Assembly (NCBI RefSeq): GCF_000264455.2
Contig: NC_017956.1
Location: 3,330,001-3,394,000, forward strand
Source of the DNA: Tistrella mobilis KA081020-065
Lineage (GTDB): Bacteria; Pseudomonadota; Alphaproteobacteria; Tistrellales; Tistrellaceae
Length of the DNA stretch: 64,000 nt
Reading direction: 5' to 3'
Part shown: positions 32,634 to 37,414 of the stretch, one piece after another
How positions within the stretch are numbered: the first letter of the stretch is position 1
Layout of the letters: every line of letters begins with the position of its first letter
Translations under genes and position numbers: made by a program
The notes under the pieces: model-generated
Told to the model about the DNA's origin: nothing
Databases searched by the model: none
Seen by the model: only the letters and a program-made list of their open reading frames with translations

Positions 32634-33560
32634 ATGGTCAAGGCGGTGTTCACGACCAGAGTGTCGCCGAGCTATGACGACCTGCCCGAGCGCTATTACC
32701 ATTTCCCGCGCAGCTATCTGCGCCAGGTCGAGGCTGCCCTCGGCGACTGGATCGTCTATTACGAACCCCGCCGGCGTTCAGCCGACCCCGGCAGCCGCGG
32801 CGGCCGGCAGGCCTATTTCGCCATCGCCCGGGTGGCCGGGATCGAGCCCGACCCGGTCCGGCCCGATCACTTCTACGCCCGGATCGACGGCTATCTCGAT
32901 CTCGAACACCCCGTCCCCTTCCGGGCAGGCCCTGGCGACACCTATGAACGCGGTCTGACGCGGGGCGATGGCGGCACCAGCAAGGGCGCTTTCGGCCGTG
33001 CGGTGCGAAATCTGTCGGATGCGGAATTCGATCGCATCGTCGCCGCCGGCTTCGGCCGGCTGATCGCCCCACCGGTGACCGTCTCGCAGACGGCCGCACC
33101 CTTCGACGGTTTCGGCGAGGCACCGGCCGTTTTCGACGACGTGCTGCCCTCGCCCCGCCCGATGATCGAGCGTCTGGTCACCCGCCCCTTCCGCGACCGC
33201 GCTTTCGCGGATGTCGTGCGCCGCGCCTATGGCCGGCGCTGCGCAATGACCGGCCTCGCTCTCGTCGACGCCGACGGCCGGGGCGAGGCAGAAGCCGCCC
33301 ATATCCGGCCGGTCGCCGACGACGGGCCGGATTCGGTGCGCAACGGCCTGGCCCTGACCGGCACGCTGCACTGGATGTTCGATCACGGTCTGGTCTCGGT
33401 GGACGAGGATCACAGCCTGCTGCTCGACCAGGGCCGGGTGCCGGACACGATCCTGCGGATCATCCATCCCGACCGGCGTCTGGTGGTGCCGGATATCCCG
33501 GATCTCCGGCCGCATCCGGAATTTCTGCGCTATCACCGCAGGGAGATCTTTCGCGGCTGA
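32634..33560 (+). CDS. HNH endonuclease with N-terminal PUA/EVE-like domain
   Basis: The 308-residue protein ends in an HNH_2-type nuclease domain (about 190-275): Cys203 in GRRCAMTGL, then AAHIRP with His223, Asn237 in DSVRNGLAL and His246/His251 in TLHWMFDHG. The N-terminal part (about 14-100) contains GDWIVYYEP, QAYFAIARVAGIEPDP, HFYARIDGYLDLEHPVPFR, a pattern like EVE/PUA-like modified-base reader domains. Such fusions are known among modification-dependent restriction enzymes, so this may cut modified foreign DNA. No methyltransferase partner is present, which fits such a role. The HNH call is good; the reader domain is inferred. Its 3' end overlaps the NodS-like gene by 101 bases on the opposite strand. 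Confidence 0.8.
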   Translation: MVKAVFTTRVSPSYDDLPERYYHFPRSYLRQVEAALGDWIVYYEPRRRSADPGSRGGRQAYFAIARVAGIEPDPVRPDHFYARIDGYLDLEHPVPFRAGPGDTYERGLTRGDGGTSKGAFGRAVRNLSDAEFDRIVAAGFGRLIAPPVTVSQTAAPFDGFGEAPAVFDDVLPSPRPMIERLVTRPFRDRAFADVVRRAYGRRCAMTGLALVDADGRGEAEAAHIRPVADDGPDSVRNGLALTGTLHWMFDHGLVSVDEDHSLLLDQGRVPDTILRIIHPDRRLVVPDIPDLRPHPEFLRYHRREIFRG

Positions 33561-34140
33561 TCCGCTTAACCCGAGAGGCCAGATCGATCCGATAGCCGGC
33601 ACCGCCCCCGATCGTGTGGTCCAGGGGGCCGGCATGGGCCGCCAACCGGGCCAGGAACAGCCGGGCCGCTTCCTCCCCCTGCAGCGCCTCTCCCGTCGGC
33701 CCCAGCCAGTTCACCAGCAGACAATATCCATCCGCCGGCCAGAGCCCGGCGATCCGGGCCGCAAGCCGGTCGATTTCGGCCGCACTCAGGAAATAGAGCA
33801 CCTCGGACAGAATGATCAGGTCGGCGGCAAGCTCCGGCCAGCCTTCCGGCAGCTCCGCCCGCAGGAAGGCCACATTCGGCCGGTCGGTACAGCGGCGCGC
33901 CGCGATCTCCAGCGCCACCCCAGACACATCGATCCCGATCACCCGATCCGCGGTGGCCGAAAGCAGCCGCGTCAATTCACCGATCGAACAACCCGCCTCG
34001 ATCGCGACCCGCCAGCGCCGCGCCGGCAGCGCGGCCAGGCTGGCGCGGTATTTTCCGCGTTCATAGGGGCGATCGCGGAACCCCCAGGGATCGGGGTCGC
34101 AGGCGTAGAGCCGGTCGAAGCGCCGCTCACGCCCGGACAT
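33460..34140 (-). CDS. NodS-like SAM-dependent methyltransferase
   Basis: The 226-residue methyltransferase shows the NodS family opening FDRLYACDPDPWGFRDRPYERGKY and SAM motif I EAGCSIGELT (48-57), followed by GIDVSGVALEIA. NodS N-methylates the deacetylated glucosamine of Nod factors; family members outside rhizobia act on unknown amines. The last roughly 30 residues lie antisense to the HNH gene and are rich in Pro, Gly and Asp, so they are probably a disordered tail. It is the last gene of a four-gene operon; its start overlaps the deacetylase gene by 14 bases, pairing N-deacetylation with N-methylation. Confidence 0.87.
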   Translation of the reverse strand: MSGRERRFDRLYACDPDPWGFRDRPYERGKYRASLAALPARRWRVAIEAGCSIGELTRLLSATADRVIGIDVSGVALEIAARRCTDRPNVAFLRAELPEGWPELAADLIILSEVLYFLSAAEIDRLAARIAGLWPADGYCLLVNWLGPTGEALQGEEAARLFLARLAAHAGPLDHTIGGGAGYRIDLASRVKRISRERSPCGDSAEIPDAAGDPGYPAPPDAGRDG

Positions 34141-34894
34141 GAGGGCCGCCGTATACGGATCCGATGAACAGCTCCGGCGTCTGCAGGAAATGCCGGCGCG
34201 TCTCCGGCGCCATCACGAAACCGTCCGGATCGTCGGCGATCAGCCGGGTGACCTGCGATCTGTGACAGCGGATGGCGGCCTGTTTGGCCTGGCGGAAGCC
34301 CCTGCCGTCGAACCGGTAAAGCCGGTCCGGCGGTGCAACTGCGGTTTCGGTGAAGCGACCCCAGACCGGGAACCGCCAGAACCGCACCCCGGGGAGCGCA
34401 GCCGCCACCCGGGCGCCGAGTACCGCGGTGCGGCGATGATCGACATGCGGATCCCCGTCCCAGGTGGTCCAGAGCGCGCCGATGCGCGCCAGGCGGGCCA
34501 GGGCGACCACCTGTCCGCAGGCCCTGGCCAGGTCCGCACCATCGGCCGGCACTCCCTGGTCGGGAAAGCCGAGGTCGATGATCCGGTGACGGCTGCGGCC
34601 GGCCAGGCAGCGGAGCGCTGCCCGGAGTTCGGCCTGCCGCAATTGCGCCAGCACGGCCGGCGGCCAGCGTCGCGAGGCGGGGTGGGACCGGGTGCCGTCG
34701 GTCACCGCCACCACGATCACCGGCAGTCCGGCCGCAGCCGCGGCCGCAAGAGCCGCGCCACAGCCGAAGGTCTCGTCATCGGGATGGGGGGCCAGAACCA
34801 TCACCGGCCGGCCGCCGGTGAGCCTGTGGAGATCGACCATCGGCGCCGCCAGGGCCGCGCGCAGCACCCGGCCACGGGCAAGCGGCGTCACCAC
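34127..34894 (-). CDS. PIG-L (LmbE) family deacetylase
   Basis: The 255-residue zinc hydrolase carries the signature APHPDDETFG (His37, Asp39-Asp40) and the C-terminal HVDHR motif that completes the metal site. PIG-L enzymes remove the N-acetyl group from GlcNAc attached to a lipid, inositol or similar carrier (as in MshB, BshB). The start is GTG; 34894 or 34891, the latter giving a GTGA overlap with the stop of the preceding gene. In this operon it would expose an amine for the NodS-like enzyme. It has no signal peptide, so it acts in the cytoplasm. Confidence 0.88.
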   Translation of the reverse strand: MVTPLARGRVLRAALAAPMVDLHRLTGGRPVMVLAPHPDDETFGCGAALAAAAAAGLPVIVVAVTDGTRSHPASRRWPPAVLAQLRQAELRAALRCLAGRSRHRIIDLGFPDQGVPADGADLARACGQVVALARLARIGALWTTWDGDPHVDHRRTAVLGARVAAALPGVRFWRFPVWGRFTETAVAPPDRLYRFDGRGFRQAKQAAIRCHRSQVTRLIADDPDGFVMAPETRRHFLQTPELFIGSVYGGPHVRA

Positions 34895-36072
34895 AGTCCG
34901 CCCTCGCGCGCGGCGCGGCCAGCCAGCGCCCGGCCGGCCGCGACCAGGCGGGCATCGGGGGCCGCCTGCCGGATGAACAGCGACAGGTCGCGGCGCAGGC
35001 GCTCCACCGGCTGATCGGTCATATGGGCATCGGTGCCGAGGGCCGCCTCGGACAGTCGCAGCACCTCGACGCAGACGTCTTCGACCAGCTGGCGAGCCAG
35101 CAGCGCATCGGTGACCGCCGCGTCGATACGGGTAGCGGATGCGGAAGTGTCCGCCCCGGCCGCTTCAACCGCCAGCGCCACCACCTCCAGCCGCGAGACC
35201 GCTGCCTGAACCAGCCCCACCGCCCGCGCAAGGCGGGCAAGCTGAAACGGATCGTCAAGTCGCCGCCGCGCGTCCAGCCGGCGACGCCAGGCCTCGATCA
35301 GCGCCTGGGCACCGCCCAGATGGGCCGCGCAATACCGCCAGATCCCGCCGTCGAAATGGGGCGGGCGCTGATAGTCGCCGGGCCCGCCGAGCAGCGCGCC
35401 TGGCCCGGCCTCAAGGCCGGTGAAGTCGTGGCGGCCCGATGCGGTGGCCCGCATGCCGGCCGCCCGCCAGTCCTGGCGCCGGTGCCGGCGACGGTCCGCG
35501 ACCGGCAGCAGCGCCAGACGCGTGGCCGTCTCCTGCCCCAACCGGAAGGTCACCACTGCCTGCGTGACCAGGCCCAGCCCCGACGCGAAGCGTTTGGCCC
35601 CGGTGAAACTCAGCCGGTGTGGGGCATCCGCGGCCGCCGACCACTCGGCCGTCAGCGGCGGCTGATCATCGGCCCCCCAGACGCCGAGCGGGCCCCCGGC
35701 CCGCACCCCGGCCGCCATCTCCGCGATCTGCGCCCGACTGCCATGAAGCGTCACCAGCTTCACCGCATCGATATGCCCCTCGACCAGCCGCGCGACCGGC
35801 AGGCTGGCACGCCCCAGGCGAAGCAGCAGGTCGAACGCCATCCGGGTGGCCTGCGGGTCGCGGCCGAGGCCCAGGCCGAGACCACCCTCCGCAGGCGGCA
35901 GACAGGCCGTGAAGACCCCCACCTCCCGCAGCCGGCCGATCTCGGGCCCCAGATCCCAGCCTTCACGATCCGCGGCAGCCGCCCCCGCCTCGATGGCAGC
36001 CAGGGCGCGGGAAAGCGGAATGTGGGGGAGCAAGGTGTGGGAGAGCGGGTCCGTCGCCATGTCTGCCGTCAT
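34888..36072 (-). CDS. acyl-CoA dehydrogenase-fold protein
   Basis: The 394-residue protein has the three-domain acyl-CoA dehydrogenase architecture: an N-terminal helical domain with LPPAEGGLGLGLG, a middle beta domain (about 125-220), and a C-terminal four-helix bundle (about 230-390) ending with GTDAHMTDQPVERLRRDLSLFIRQAAPD. The last segment resembles acyl-CoA dehydrogenase-fold flavin monooxygenases more than dehydrogenases, and I could not find the usual catalytic Glu. It may oxidise or hydroxylate an acyl or amine group. ATGA overlap with the glycosyltransferase stop upstream and a 4-7 base overlap with the PIG-L gene downstream. Confidence 0.77.
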   Translation of the reverse strand: MTADMATDPLSHTLLPHIPLSRALAAIEAGAAAADREGWDLGPEIGRLREVGVFTACLPPAEGGLGLGLGRDPQATRMAFDLLLRLGRASLPVARLVEGHIDAVKLVTLHGSRAQIAEMAAGVRAGGPLGVWGADDQPPLTAEWSAAADAPHRLSFTGAKRFASGLGLVTQAVVTFRLGQETATRLALLPVADRRRHRRQDWRAAGMRATASGRHDFTGLEAGPGALLGGPGDYQRPPHFDGGIWRYCAAHLGGAQALIEAWRRRLDARRRLDDPFQLARLARAVGLVQAAVSRLEVVALAVEAAGADTSASATRIDAAVTDALLARQLVEDVCVEVLRLSEAALGTDAHMTDQPVERLRRDLSLFIRQAAPDARLVAAGRALAGRAAREGGLW

Positions 36073-37262
36073 GGCATCTCCTGAAACAGGCGGTCGGCAT
36101 GTTCTTCGTCGCCCTCCGGCCGCAGCGCCCGACAGGCCGCCACCAGCCTTGGCAGGCCGGCCGCCACATCGCTCAGCCGCATGCGCCAGCGGGCAAGATG
36201 AGGGTGCTGTGCCTCGACCGCCGCCCAGACCGGCCCGAAGCCGGCCGCGCGATCTGGCAGACGGCCCTCGAAACCGCTCCACCGCAGCAACGGCGCCGGA
36301 TCGATATCCGCAGCCAAAAGCCGGCGCACCCGCGCCCGCAAGGCGGCCCGCAACCACAGCATGCCCAGCGGCTCGAAATCCTCGTCGGCCGGATGATCCC
36401 CGGCCACCAGGCCGGCGGCCAGGGTATCGGCCAGCCCGCCGGCTGCCCGGCCGGTCAGCCGGCACGAGGTCACCACCCGAACGGCGGGATCGTGACGCAC
36501 CGGCAGGCCATGGGCGCGGATCCGGCGGGCAAAGGCGCGGTCCTCGGCATGCGATACGGCGGGCAGGCCGCCCACGCGGTCCCAGGCCCGGGCGGCGACG
36601 GCCAGGCTGGCCCCGCCGACCTCGCCATGAGAGGGCCAGGGGTCGTGCGGGTCCGGGTCCAGCCGCGCCACCAGTTCAGCCGCATGCCGGCGCCAGCGCG
36701 CCTGCAAGCGGTAGCGCGCGGTGATCGTCGGCGGCAGGCGGTTGAATTCGGCCGGATCGAAAGCGATGCGTCCGCAGACCAGGGCCGCGCCCTTGCCGAG
36801 AGCGGCAAGATTGGCCCGGACCCAGTCGGGATCCGGTCGGGTATCGGCATCGGTGGTGAGCAGCACGCCATCTTCCCCGACCCTGGCGCGCGCCAGATCA
36901 AGCGCCTGCCGCCGGGCAGCCCCGGCATGGGCCAGATCCCGCGGCAAGCGGCACGACACCACGTCAACCGGTATGTCGGAGGCCATGGGCAGATCGGACC
37001 GGGCAGCCCACGACATCGCACGCGCTGCCGTGTCGTCGACGGAATTATTGACCAGCACCAGGATCCGCCCGCGGGCCGGCCAGGCACGGGAAGCCGCCTG
37101 TGCGCAGGCCTCCAGGCATCCGATGATCCGCGCGGCCTCGTCCCGCGCGGGGATGGCAATCACATAGGCGGCATCCTGTCGCCAGGGCGGAACCGACGAC
37201 GCCCCGCCATCCGCATCCTCTCCATCCTGCACACCGCGCACCGGCACCCCTCCGTCAGCCAT
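36069..37262 (-). CDS. family 2 glycosyltransferase
   Basis: The 397-residue protein has a GT-A fold: VIAIPARDEAARI (34-46) and the metal-binding Asp-x-Asp DAD (138-140) in LLTTDADTRPDPDW. A later HAEDRAFARRIRAHG segment supplies the typical ED acid. No membrane helix is evident, so it acts in the cytoplasm. It would transfer a sugar, possibly a hexosamine, onto an acceptor acted on by the downstream genes. It is the first gene of the four-gene operon, starting 75 bases behind tRNA-Arg, with no clear ribosome-binding site. Confidence 0.86.
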   Translation of the reverse strand: MADGGVPVRGVQDGEDADGGASSVPPWRQDAAYVIAIPARDEAARIIGCLEACAQAASRAWPARGRILVLVNNSVDDTAARAMSWAARSDLPMASDIPVDVVSCRLPRDLAHAGAARRQALDLARARVGEDGVLLTTDADTRPDPDWVRANLAALGKGAALVCGRIAFDPAEFNRLPPTITARYRLQARWRRHAAELVARLDPDPHDPWPSHGEVGGASLAVAARAWDRVGGLPAVSHAEDRAFARRIRAHGLPVRHDPAVRVVTSCRLTGRAAGGLADTLAAGLVAGDHPADEDFEPLGMLWLRAALRARVRRLLAADIDPAPLLRWSGFEGRLPDRAAGFGPVWAAVEAQHPHLARWRMRLSDVAAGLPRLVAACRALRPEGDEEHADRLFQEMP

Positions 37263-37337: not shown

Positions 37338-37414
37338 TGGCGTCCCCGGCAGGATTCGAACCTGCGACCCCAGGATTAGGAATCCTGTGCTCTATCCTGC
37401 TGAGCTACGGGGAC
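37338..37414 (-). tRNA. tRNA-Arg (anticodon CCT)
   Basis: The minus strand folds into a complete cloverleaf. The 7-bp acceptor stem is GTCCCCG with CGGGGAC. The D arm has AGCTCAG-type sequence, the anticodon stem is CAGGA/TCCTG with loop TTCCTAA, and the T arm contains GGTTCGAATCC. The anticodon CCT reads AGG. The CCA end is encoded (37338-37340). The total is 77 bases. Confidence 0.95.

What the first reader, a model, noticed from the sequence alone, without database searches (positions are those of the whole stretch)
33460..37262. Four-gene overlapping cassette: glycosyltransferase, acyl-CoA-dehydrogenase-fold protein, PIG-L deacetylase, NodS-like methyltransferase
All four minus-strand genes overlap at their start/stop codons (ATGA, 4-7 bases, 14 bases), so they are translated as one unit. 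The combination of sugar transfer, N-deacetylation (PIG-L) and N-methylation (NodS-like) parallels Nod-factor tailoring. There is no NodA-type acyltransferase; an acyl-CoA-dehydrogenase-fold protein stands in its place. The inferred product is a small N-methylated aminosugar conjugate or glycolipid. I recall similar cassettes in other alphaproteobacteria but do not know of any with a defined product.
Basis: partly seen in the sequence, partly recalled or inferred. Interest (0 to 1): 0.78.

Follow-up and report, generated by a model that had tools for sequence, protein, structure and literature searches.

The report
Conserved stress-linked aminosugar-tailoring operon
Four overlapping bacterial genes form an operon whose product is unknown; it recurs in distantly related bacteria, often beside stress-survival genes, and probably builds and modifies a small sugar-containing molecule.

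Summary
Four minus-strand genes (33460-37262) overlap by 4, 4 or 7, and 14 bases: GT2 glycosyltransferase, acyl-CoA-dehydrogenase-fold flavoprotein, PIG-L deacetylase, NodS-like methyltransferase. The set is a conserved cassette: 25 of 34 flavoprotein loci carry all four genes within about 6 kb, against none of the four in 40 control regions. It reaches other phyla. The "acyl-CoA dehydrogenase" is misnamed: the catalytic Glu is Gln in 34 of 34 members, and its nearest solved relatives are DszC/TdsC-type flavin monooxygenases. The Nod parallel is partly right: NodS is the nearest named PDB relative of the methyltransferase, and other proteins fuse GT2, NodS-like and NodB-type domains; membership in Nod synthesis fails. 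Neighbourhoods are enriched in stress genes (8 of 33 loci against 0 of 40 controls, p=0.001), and in A. baumannii what looks like the same operon is published as falling together with trehalose and catalase genes. The window itself holds none of these stress markers. Ten paper searches showed no assigned product. Chemistry and function remain inferred.

The parts
36069..37262 (-). GT2-family (GT-A fold) glycosyltransferase, 397 aa, ATG start, no hydrophobic stretch that suggests a membrane helix (max KD19 1.22)
   Evidence: (D76, D138-A139-D140, E240-D241 invariant in 24 sequences; their role is recalled)
34888..36072 (-). acyl-CoA-dehydrogenase-fold flavoprotein nearest to the DszC type, 394 aa; catalytic Glu of true dehydrogenases replaced by Gln (Q369)
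34127..34891 (-). PIG-L (LmbE-like) N-deacetylase, GTG start at 34891 (or 34894); HPDDE and HxDH motifs present
33460..34140 (-). NodS-like SAM-dependent methyltransferase, 226 aa; conserved part ends near residue 190
36069..36072 (-). ATGA overlap, GT stop / flavoprotein start
34888..34894 (-). overlap of flavoprotein stop with PIG-L start (4 or 7 bases)
34127..34140 (-). 14-base overlap, PIG-L stop / methyltransferase start
37338..37414 (-). tRNA-Arg (CCT), 75 bases upstream of the GT start; flank that is kept in the sister species that lost the cassette

Best explanation
A conserved four-gene operon for a soluble pathway that builds and tailors a small glycoconjugate, used mainly in stress survival. 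Proposed order: the GT2 enzyme transfers an N-acetylated sugar (donor not shown) to a small acceptor; PIG-L removes the N-acetyl group; the NodS-like enzyme methylates the freed amine; the DszC/KijD3-like flavoprotein oxidises the amine or a nearby atom, with reduced flavin from a general cellular reductase. Shown: the genes, the overlaps, conservation as a set, loss of the dehydrogenase base, and enrichment of stress genes around relatives of the cassette. Inferred: every chemical step, the order of steps, donor and acceptor, and the stress role, which is not visible at the window's own locus.
For: Set conservation: all four genes within about 6 kb in 25 of 34 flavoprotein loci, flavoprotein plus methyltransferase in 33 of 34, none of the four in 40 control regions from 25 of the same genomes. 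Of 80 named loci, 35 have all four. Order is GT-ACAD-PIGL-MT, ACAD-PIGL-MT-GT, or ACAD-PIGL-MT with a convergent GT. PIG-L and methyltransferase are one open frame in L079. Chemistry: PIG-L motifs kept; NodS is the best named PDB relative of the methyltransferase (3ofj, 1.1e-29); the flavoprotein is nearest to DszC/TdsC/MsuC by sequence, with sugar nitrososynthases KijD3, DnmZ and ORF36 also matched. GT2-NodS-CE4 fusions, with an unrelated deacetylase, repeat the logic. Stress: 18 marker families from plasmid neighbourhoods hit 8 of 33 loci and 0 of 40 controls, Fisher p=0.001; in four loci of family f182 (L092, L095, L096, L099) glgX/treY-like genes adjoin the cassette. PMC5660220 (passages): A. 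baumannii ACICU_02432-02435 fall 31-62-fold in two colistin-dependent mutants, in a table that also holds trehalose-6-phosphate synthase/phosphatase (12-50-fold) and a catalase (22-31-fold).
Against: No substrate or product is known. None of the marker families is found in the 64 kb window, and no general-stress (EcfG-type) promoter signal stands out upstream (3 of 84 loci against 0.63 expected from shuffles; motif recalled). 9 of 34 loci lack GT and/or PIG-L or, once, the methyltransferase; 45 of 80 named loci lack at least one gene, 13 having the flavoprotein alone (some contigs end nearby). 25 of 33 loci show no marker of the fixed set. Z scores of monooxygenases (38) and true dehydrogenases (36) differ by only about 2. 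In the alignment, DszC H92 and Y96 (catalytic role recalled) are not kept.
Confidence: 0.5

Rival explanations
1. Envelope glycan pathway: the enzymes build or trim an N-methylated aminosugar on a lipid-linked or surface glycan (LPS or exopolysaccharide decoration).
For: GT4 glycosyltransferases lie nearby in 5 of 33 loci, against 1 of 40 controls for one GT4 query and 0 of 40 for the other; the Deinococcus plasmid copy has a GT1 and a UDP-galactopyranose mutase gene close by; in L238 the GT2-NodS-CE4 fusion sits among further GT-like frames and an ABC-transporter-like frame (read by eye); the A. baumannii operon falls in colistin-dependent mutants with lpx changes (PMC5660220).
Against: None of the four window proteins shows a clear membrane segment (highest KD19 2.25, in the PIG-L core); in 28 of 33 loci no GT4 gene was found; the A. 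baumannii drop is shared with trehalose and catalase genes.
Confidence: 0.2
2. A mycothiol- or bacillithiol-like glucosamine conjugate: GT plus PIG-L make a GlcN-glycoside that is methylated and oxidised as a redox buffer.
For: The GT plus PIG-L core is the same as in those pathways (recalled); the PIG-L has weak matches to BshB1/BshB2 and MshB; catalase or Dps genes near plasmid copies.
Against: BshB1 score 40.6 of the 182.5 cut-off; no cysteine ligase among the four genes; the GT is GT2, not the GT4 type of MshA/BshA (recalled).
Confidence: 0.12
3. Nod-factor-like lipo-oligosaccharide.
For: NodS-like methyltransferase, a deacetylase and a GT in one operon; GT2-NodS-CE4 fusions in other genomes.
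Against: No NodA among the 9 ORFs tested; no NodB-type deacetylase; GT without membrane segment; flavoprotein without the acyl-CoA dehydrogenase base; found in Deinococcus, Kitasatospora, Hymenobacter and a cyanobacterial MAG.
Confidence: 0.08
4. PIG-L and the methyltransferase act on a non-sugar amide, for example to make an N-methylated osmolyte, and the GT glycosylates it.
For: Trehalose or sucrose synthesis genes lie next to several cassettes; PIG-L enzymes act on varied amides (recalled).
Against: The nearest named relatives of PIG-L and NodS act on amino sugars (names; functions recalled).
Confidence: 0.1

Closest known systems
A. baumannii ACICU_02432-02435, operon 'e' of PMC5660220; a like gene set beside blsA in PMC6240043
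   Same: Same four product names in the same order (glycosyltransferase, SAM methyltransferase, LmbE, acyl-CoA-dehydrogenase-related), listed as one operon; Acinetobacter plasmid homologues carry the same annotation
   Different: Matched by names and order, not by sequence here; the passages read give no function or product
Nod-factor genes nodC/nodB/nodS
   Same: GT, N-deacetylase and NodS-type N-methyltransferase logic
   Different: Deacetylase is PIG-L not CE4; no NodA found; GT without membrane segment; NodS equivalog cut-off not reached; extra flavoprotein
DszC/TdsC monooxygenases and sugar nitrososynthases KijD3, DnmZ, ORF36
   Same: Among the best sequence and fold relatives of the flavoprotein
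   Different: 17-21% identity; DszC H92/Y96 positions not kept; substrate unknown
Mycothiol (MshA/MshB) and bacillithiol (BshA/BshB) pathways
   Same: GT with a PIG-L deacetylase on a small conjugate (recalled)
   Different: GT2 not GT4; no ligase; methyltransferase and flavoprotein added; scores far below cut-offs
   Same: Related NodS-like domain with a GT2 and a deacetylase in one polypeptide
   Different: CE4 deacetylase, no flavoprotein domain, glycan-type neighbours

Membership tests
Nod-factor biosynthesis (nodABCS) | NodS equivalog methyltransferase | tested here: not met
   NF041650 48.4 bits of cut-off 300; the broader Pfam NodS family is met (34.3 of 24)
Nod-factor biosynthesis (nodABCS) | NodB-type CE4 deacetylase in the operon | tested here: not met
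   the deacetylase is PIG-L, PF02585 77.4 bits
Nod-factor biosynthesis (nodABCS) | NodA acyltransferase nearby | tested here: not met
   none among 9 ORFs between 29540 and 38692; the rest of the window and genome was not scanned for it
Acyl-CoA dehydrogenase | catalytic Glu at the YEGT position | tested here: not met
   Gln in 34 of 34 members; Glu in the 4 paralogues that carry the Y-x-G-T/S motif, out of 26 loci looked at
Acyl-CoA dehydrogenase | overall fold | tested here: met
   pLDDT 89.9; Z up to 36.3 with true dehydrogenases
DszC-type flavin monooxygenase | closest sequence and fold | tested here: met
   DszC 3.3e-20, TdsC 9.7e-18, MsuC 5.2e-16; next 5z8t/5gj7, named acyl-CoA dehydrogenase type 2 in the PDB but 5z8t titled flavin-containing monooxygenase, 9.3e-15; human ACAD8 6.2e-14; Foldseek ranks 1-20 are TdsC, DszC and MAB_4123
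DszC-type flavin monooxygenase | DszC residues H92 and Y96 (catalytic role recalled) | tested here: not met
   other residues stand there in the profile alignment
DszC-type flavin monooxygenase | flavin binding and oxygenase activity | not testable with these tools
   needs protein
PIG-L / LmbE-like N-deacetylase | Pfam score and motifs (HPDDE, HxDH) | tested here: met
   77.4 bits of 28.2; motifs in the alignment
Mycothiol/bacillithiol deacetylase (MshB/BshB) | equivalog cut-off | tested here: not met
   BshB1 40.6 of 182.5; MshB 29.2 of 224.35
Conserved GT-flavoprotein-PIGL-NodS cassette | all four genes together | tested here: met
   window complete; 25 of 34 loci

The most novel reading that the evidence does not exclude
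The cassette makes an undescribed protective metabolite shared by distantly related bacteria: a small glycoside whose amino sugar is N-methylated and then N-oxygenated (hydroxylamine or nitrone) by the flavoprotein, acting as a radical scavenger or compatible solute during desiccation, osmotic or oxidative stress.
Probability: 0.15. Interest if true: 0.85.

Novelty: new variant of a known kind. Interest (0 to 1): 0.6.

Why it matters
An orphan pathway this widespread (members in Pseudomonadota, Deinococcota and Actinomycetota plasmids, four Hymenobacter loci, and MAG contigs labelled Tildeniella and Puniceicoccaceae), coupled so tightly and placed repeatedly beside trehalose, catalase and DNA-repair genes, probably makes something many bacteria use to survive drying or oxidation. 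The usual annotation of the flavoprotein as an acyl-CoA dehydrogenase may have hidden it. One deletion plus metabolomics would show whether it makes a new class of stress metabolite.

Tried and rejected
Acyl-CoA dehydrogenase or NodA substitute: rejected by loss of the catalytic Glu. General-stress sigma (EcfG) promoter upstream: 3 of 84 loci (85 listed, one passed over) against 0.63 expected from shuffles, and 37 of 2550 random pieces; not convincing, not used as support. Stress markers in the window itself: none. Tyrosine-recombinase reading of the 683-base filler in the sister species: by eye only; Pfam gave no match. GT donor from fold: best hits PcManGT, TarS, chondroitin polymerase and WrtF, with TM-scores on the query of 0.34-0.44 in the 50 rows shown, so no donor can be named. 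Literature: ten searches. Four papers were opened, by passages only; two (PMC5660220, PMC6240043) mention the gene set, without a product in the passages. The passages seen of PMC10653896 and PMC11348943 do not show it. The other listed papers were not opened. Many Methylobacterium loci carry only flavoprotein plus methyltransferase, or the flavoprotein alone; they were kept in the counts. In one search, 160 of 398 genomes had a match; the 36 best-scoring matches (65 bits and more) were opened, the weaker ones not.
Full report
The four genes. The window carries four minus-strand genes that overlap at every junction: a GT2 glycosyltransferase (37262-36069), an acyl-CoA-dehydrogenase-fold protein (36072-34888), a PIG-L deacetylase (34891 or 34894 to 34127) and a NodS-like methyltransferase (34140-33460). 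Overlaps are 4, 4 or 7, and 14 bases. Pfam supports GT2, PIG-L and NodS above their cut-offs. The second protein has no Pfam match at E 1e-3 and only sub-cut-off NCBIfam matches to SfnB and DszC. A tRNA-Arg (CCT) lies 75 bases upstream. The methyltransferase frame overlaps a convergent HNH gene by 101 bases. The window is in a 6.5 Mb, five-contig genome; by size and contig number I think of Tistrella (Alphaproteobacteria), but that is recall only.

Is the set conserved? A scan of 289 genomes of the class with the flavoprotein gave 34 genomes with any match; only two genomes of the own species, G282 and G012 stood well clear. A profile scan of 398 genomes of the phylum gave a match in 160, with a clear group on top. 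I fetched the surroundings of the 36 best matches (the weaker ones, 61 bits and less, were not opened) and dropped two with no other cassette gene above threshold (L105, L106); the same-species copy L034 was left out too. Of the 34 loci left, window included, 25 hold all four genes, 3 lack GT, 2 lack PIG-L, 3 hold flavoprotein and methyltransferase only, and 1 holds flavoprotein and PIG-L only. The methyltransferase is present in 33, PIG-L in 29, GT in 27. Forty regions from 25 of the same genomes hold none of the four. The profiles were built partly from these loci, starting from the window proteins. Among 41 relatives searched the family stands apart: 294 and 310 bits for two genomes, the next at 69.

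Named loci. A scan of named species genomes kept 80 of 262 confirmed matches, mostly Methylobacterium but also Palleronia, Acuticoccus, Ancylobacter, Roseomonas, Hymenobacter, Tildeniella and Puniceicoccaceae. Of the 80, 35 have all four genes, 8 lack PIG-L, 21 have flavoprotein and methyltransferase only, 13 the flavoprotein alone, and 3 other sets; some contigs end nearby. All four are present in four of five Hymenobacter loci and in the Tildeniella and Puniceicoccaceae MAG contigs. Of ten plasmid neighbourhoods opened, nine have the flavoprotein with the methyltransferase, among them Kitasatospora and Deinococcus; the Methylobacterium one does not. Of 64 loci with PIG-L and methyltransferase on one strand, 62 have them adjacent, overlapping or fused; in L079 they are one open frame.

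What the enzymes are. In 34 of 34 members the catalytic Glu of acyl-CoA dehydrogenases is Gln; four true paralogues, picked by their Y-x-G-T/S motif from 26 loci, have Glu there. A profile against solved structures ranks DszC, TdsC and MsuC first (3e-20 to 5e-16), then 5z8t/5gj7 (9e-15), human ACAD8 (6e-14), KijD3 (1.5e-13) and more dehydrogenases, with DnmZ and ORF36 lower (3m9v/4kcf identified as KijD3 and 3mxl as ORF36 titles and recall). The predicted structure (pLDDT 89.9) is closest to TdsC, DszC and MAB_4123; Z is 37.4-38.2 for these, 35.5-37.0 for nitrososynthases and up to 36.3 for true dehydrogenases, so the fold alone does not decide. The DszC residues H92 and Y96, whose catalytic role I recall, are not kept. 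I therefore read it as a flavin monooxygenase-like enzyme, perhaps acting on an amine, and not as an acyl enzyme. The methyltransferase profile is closest to 4isc (1.5e-69), named only methyltransferase, and then to NodS (1.1e-29). The GT keeps GT-A motifs but its donor cannot be told. The PIG-L keeps its motifs.

The Nod comparison. Lower-scoring relatives of the methyltransferase in six other genomes of the class sit inside frames of 880-1131 aa. Five were fetched. Pfam of two shows GT2, NodS and CE4 (NodB-type) domains in one polypeptide, and the other three align to the first over at least 877 of its 1001 residues, at 35-95% identity. So a NodS-like domain, a GT and a deacetylase come together at least twice, with unrelated deacetylases. 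This supports methylation of a freed sugar amine as logic, without making the cassette a Nod-factor system.

Stress link. Plasmid neighbourhoods contain catalase, trehalose synthesis (otsA/otsB), DUF421, Dps, Ku/LigD, CsbD, PA2169-type and general stress genes. From 51 neighbour families I fixed 18 by hand as stress markers in the same script, before seeing its result, and sought them around the chromosomal loci: 8 of 33 hit, 0 of 40 controls, Fisher p=0.001. Adding treY/malQ/glgX-like queries taken from the test loci themselves (so post hoc, and four of the five added loci are one family) gives 13 of 33 against 1 of 40, by my count. In L095 and its three relatives a glgX-like gene directly precedes the flavoprotein gene on the same strand (gene names inferred from amylase, CBM48 and GH77 domains). 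BLUF photoreceptor genes occur in L104 and 5 of 80 named loci and near the Bradyrhizobium plasmid copy; PMC6240043 (one passage read) places the gene set beside blsA in A. baumannii. PMC5660220 (passages read) lists ACICU_02432-02435 as one operon that falls 31-62-fold in two colistin-dependent mutants, in a table of genes changed more than 10-fold that also holds trehalose-6-phosphate synthase/phosphatase and a catalase. Against this, none of the marker families is found anywhere in the window; the five flanking genes scanned are a prolyl aminopeptidase, an HNH gene, an enoyl-CoA hydratase-like, an FAD oxidoreductase and an epimerase-like gene; and no EcfG-type promoter enrichment was convincing.

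Loss in a sister species. Genome G162 of the same genus keeps both flanks at 89-92% identity but has 683 bases of other sequence and then the 3' end of the methyltransferase gene, in a 315-base stretch at 93% identity. Most simply, the cassette was present in the ancestor and was deleted there.

Verdict. The operon and its conservation are shown. The chemistry is inferred from families, and the stress role from neighbourhoods and published expression. No product was seen in ten paper searches of the library held.

Noticed in passing
L043 5703-6700 (G162, same genus): The sister species has lost the cassette: tRNA-Arg, then 683 bases that look by eye like a tyrosine-recombinase remnant (Pfam found no match), then a truncated methyltransferase 3' end at 93% identity.
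   Followed up: partly
   Followed up: partly
L092, L095, L096, L099: Four loci of one family carry a second PIG-L gene nearby whose HPDDE motif reads HPGDE, suggesting a catalytically altered paralogue.
   Followed up: partly
L079 5502-7655: PIG-L and methyltransferase in one open frame, apparently a fusion of two cassette enzymes.
   Followed up: partly
window 32634-33560 (+): HNH_2 gene with a sub-cut-off match to phosphorothioate-DNA restriction endonuclease (70.6 of 180 bits), converging on and overlapping the methyltransferase gene by 101 bases.
   Followed up: no
L191 5357-5866 and 14 other named loci: In 15 of 80 named loci (mostly Methylobacterium) a LigD-like phosphoesterase sequence lies near the flavoprotein gene, in L191 between GT and flavoprotein.
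   Followed up: partly
L088 775-8884: A divergent methyltransferase-flavoprotein pair sits beside a sucrose-phosphate synthase/phosphatase-like gene and a histone-deacetylase-family gene, which might replace PIG-L.
   Followed up: partly
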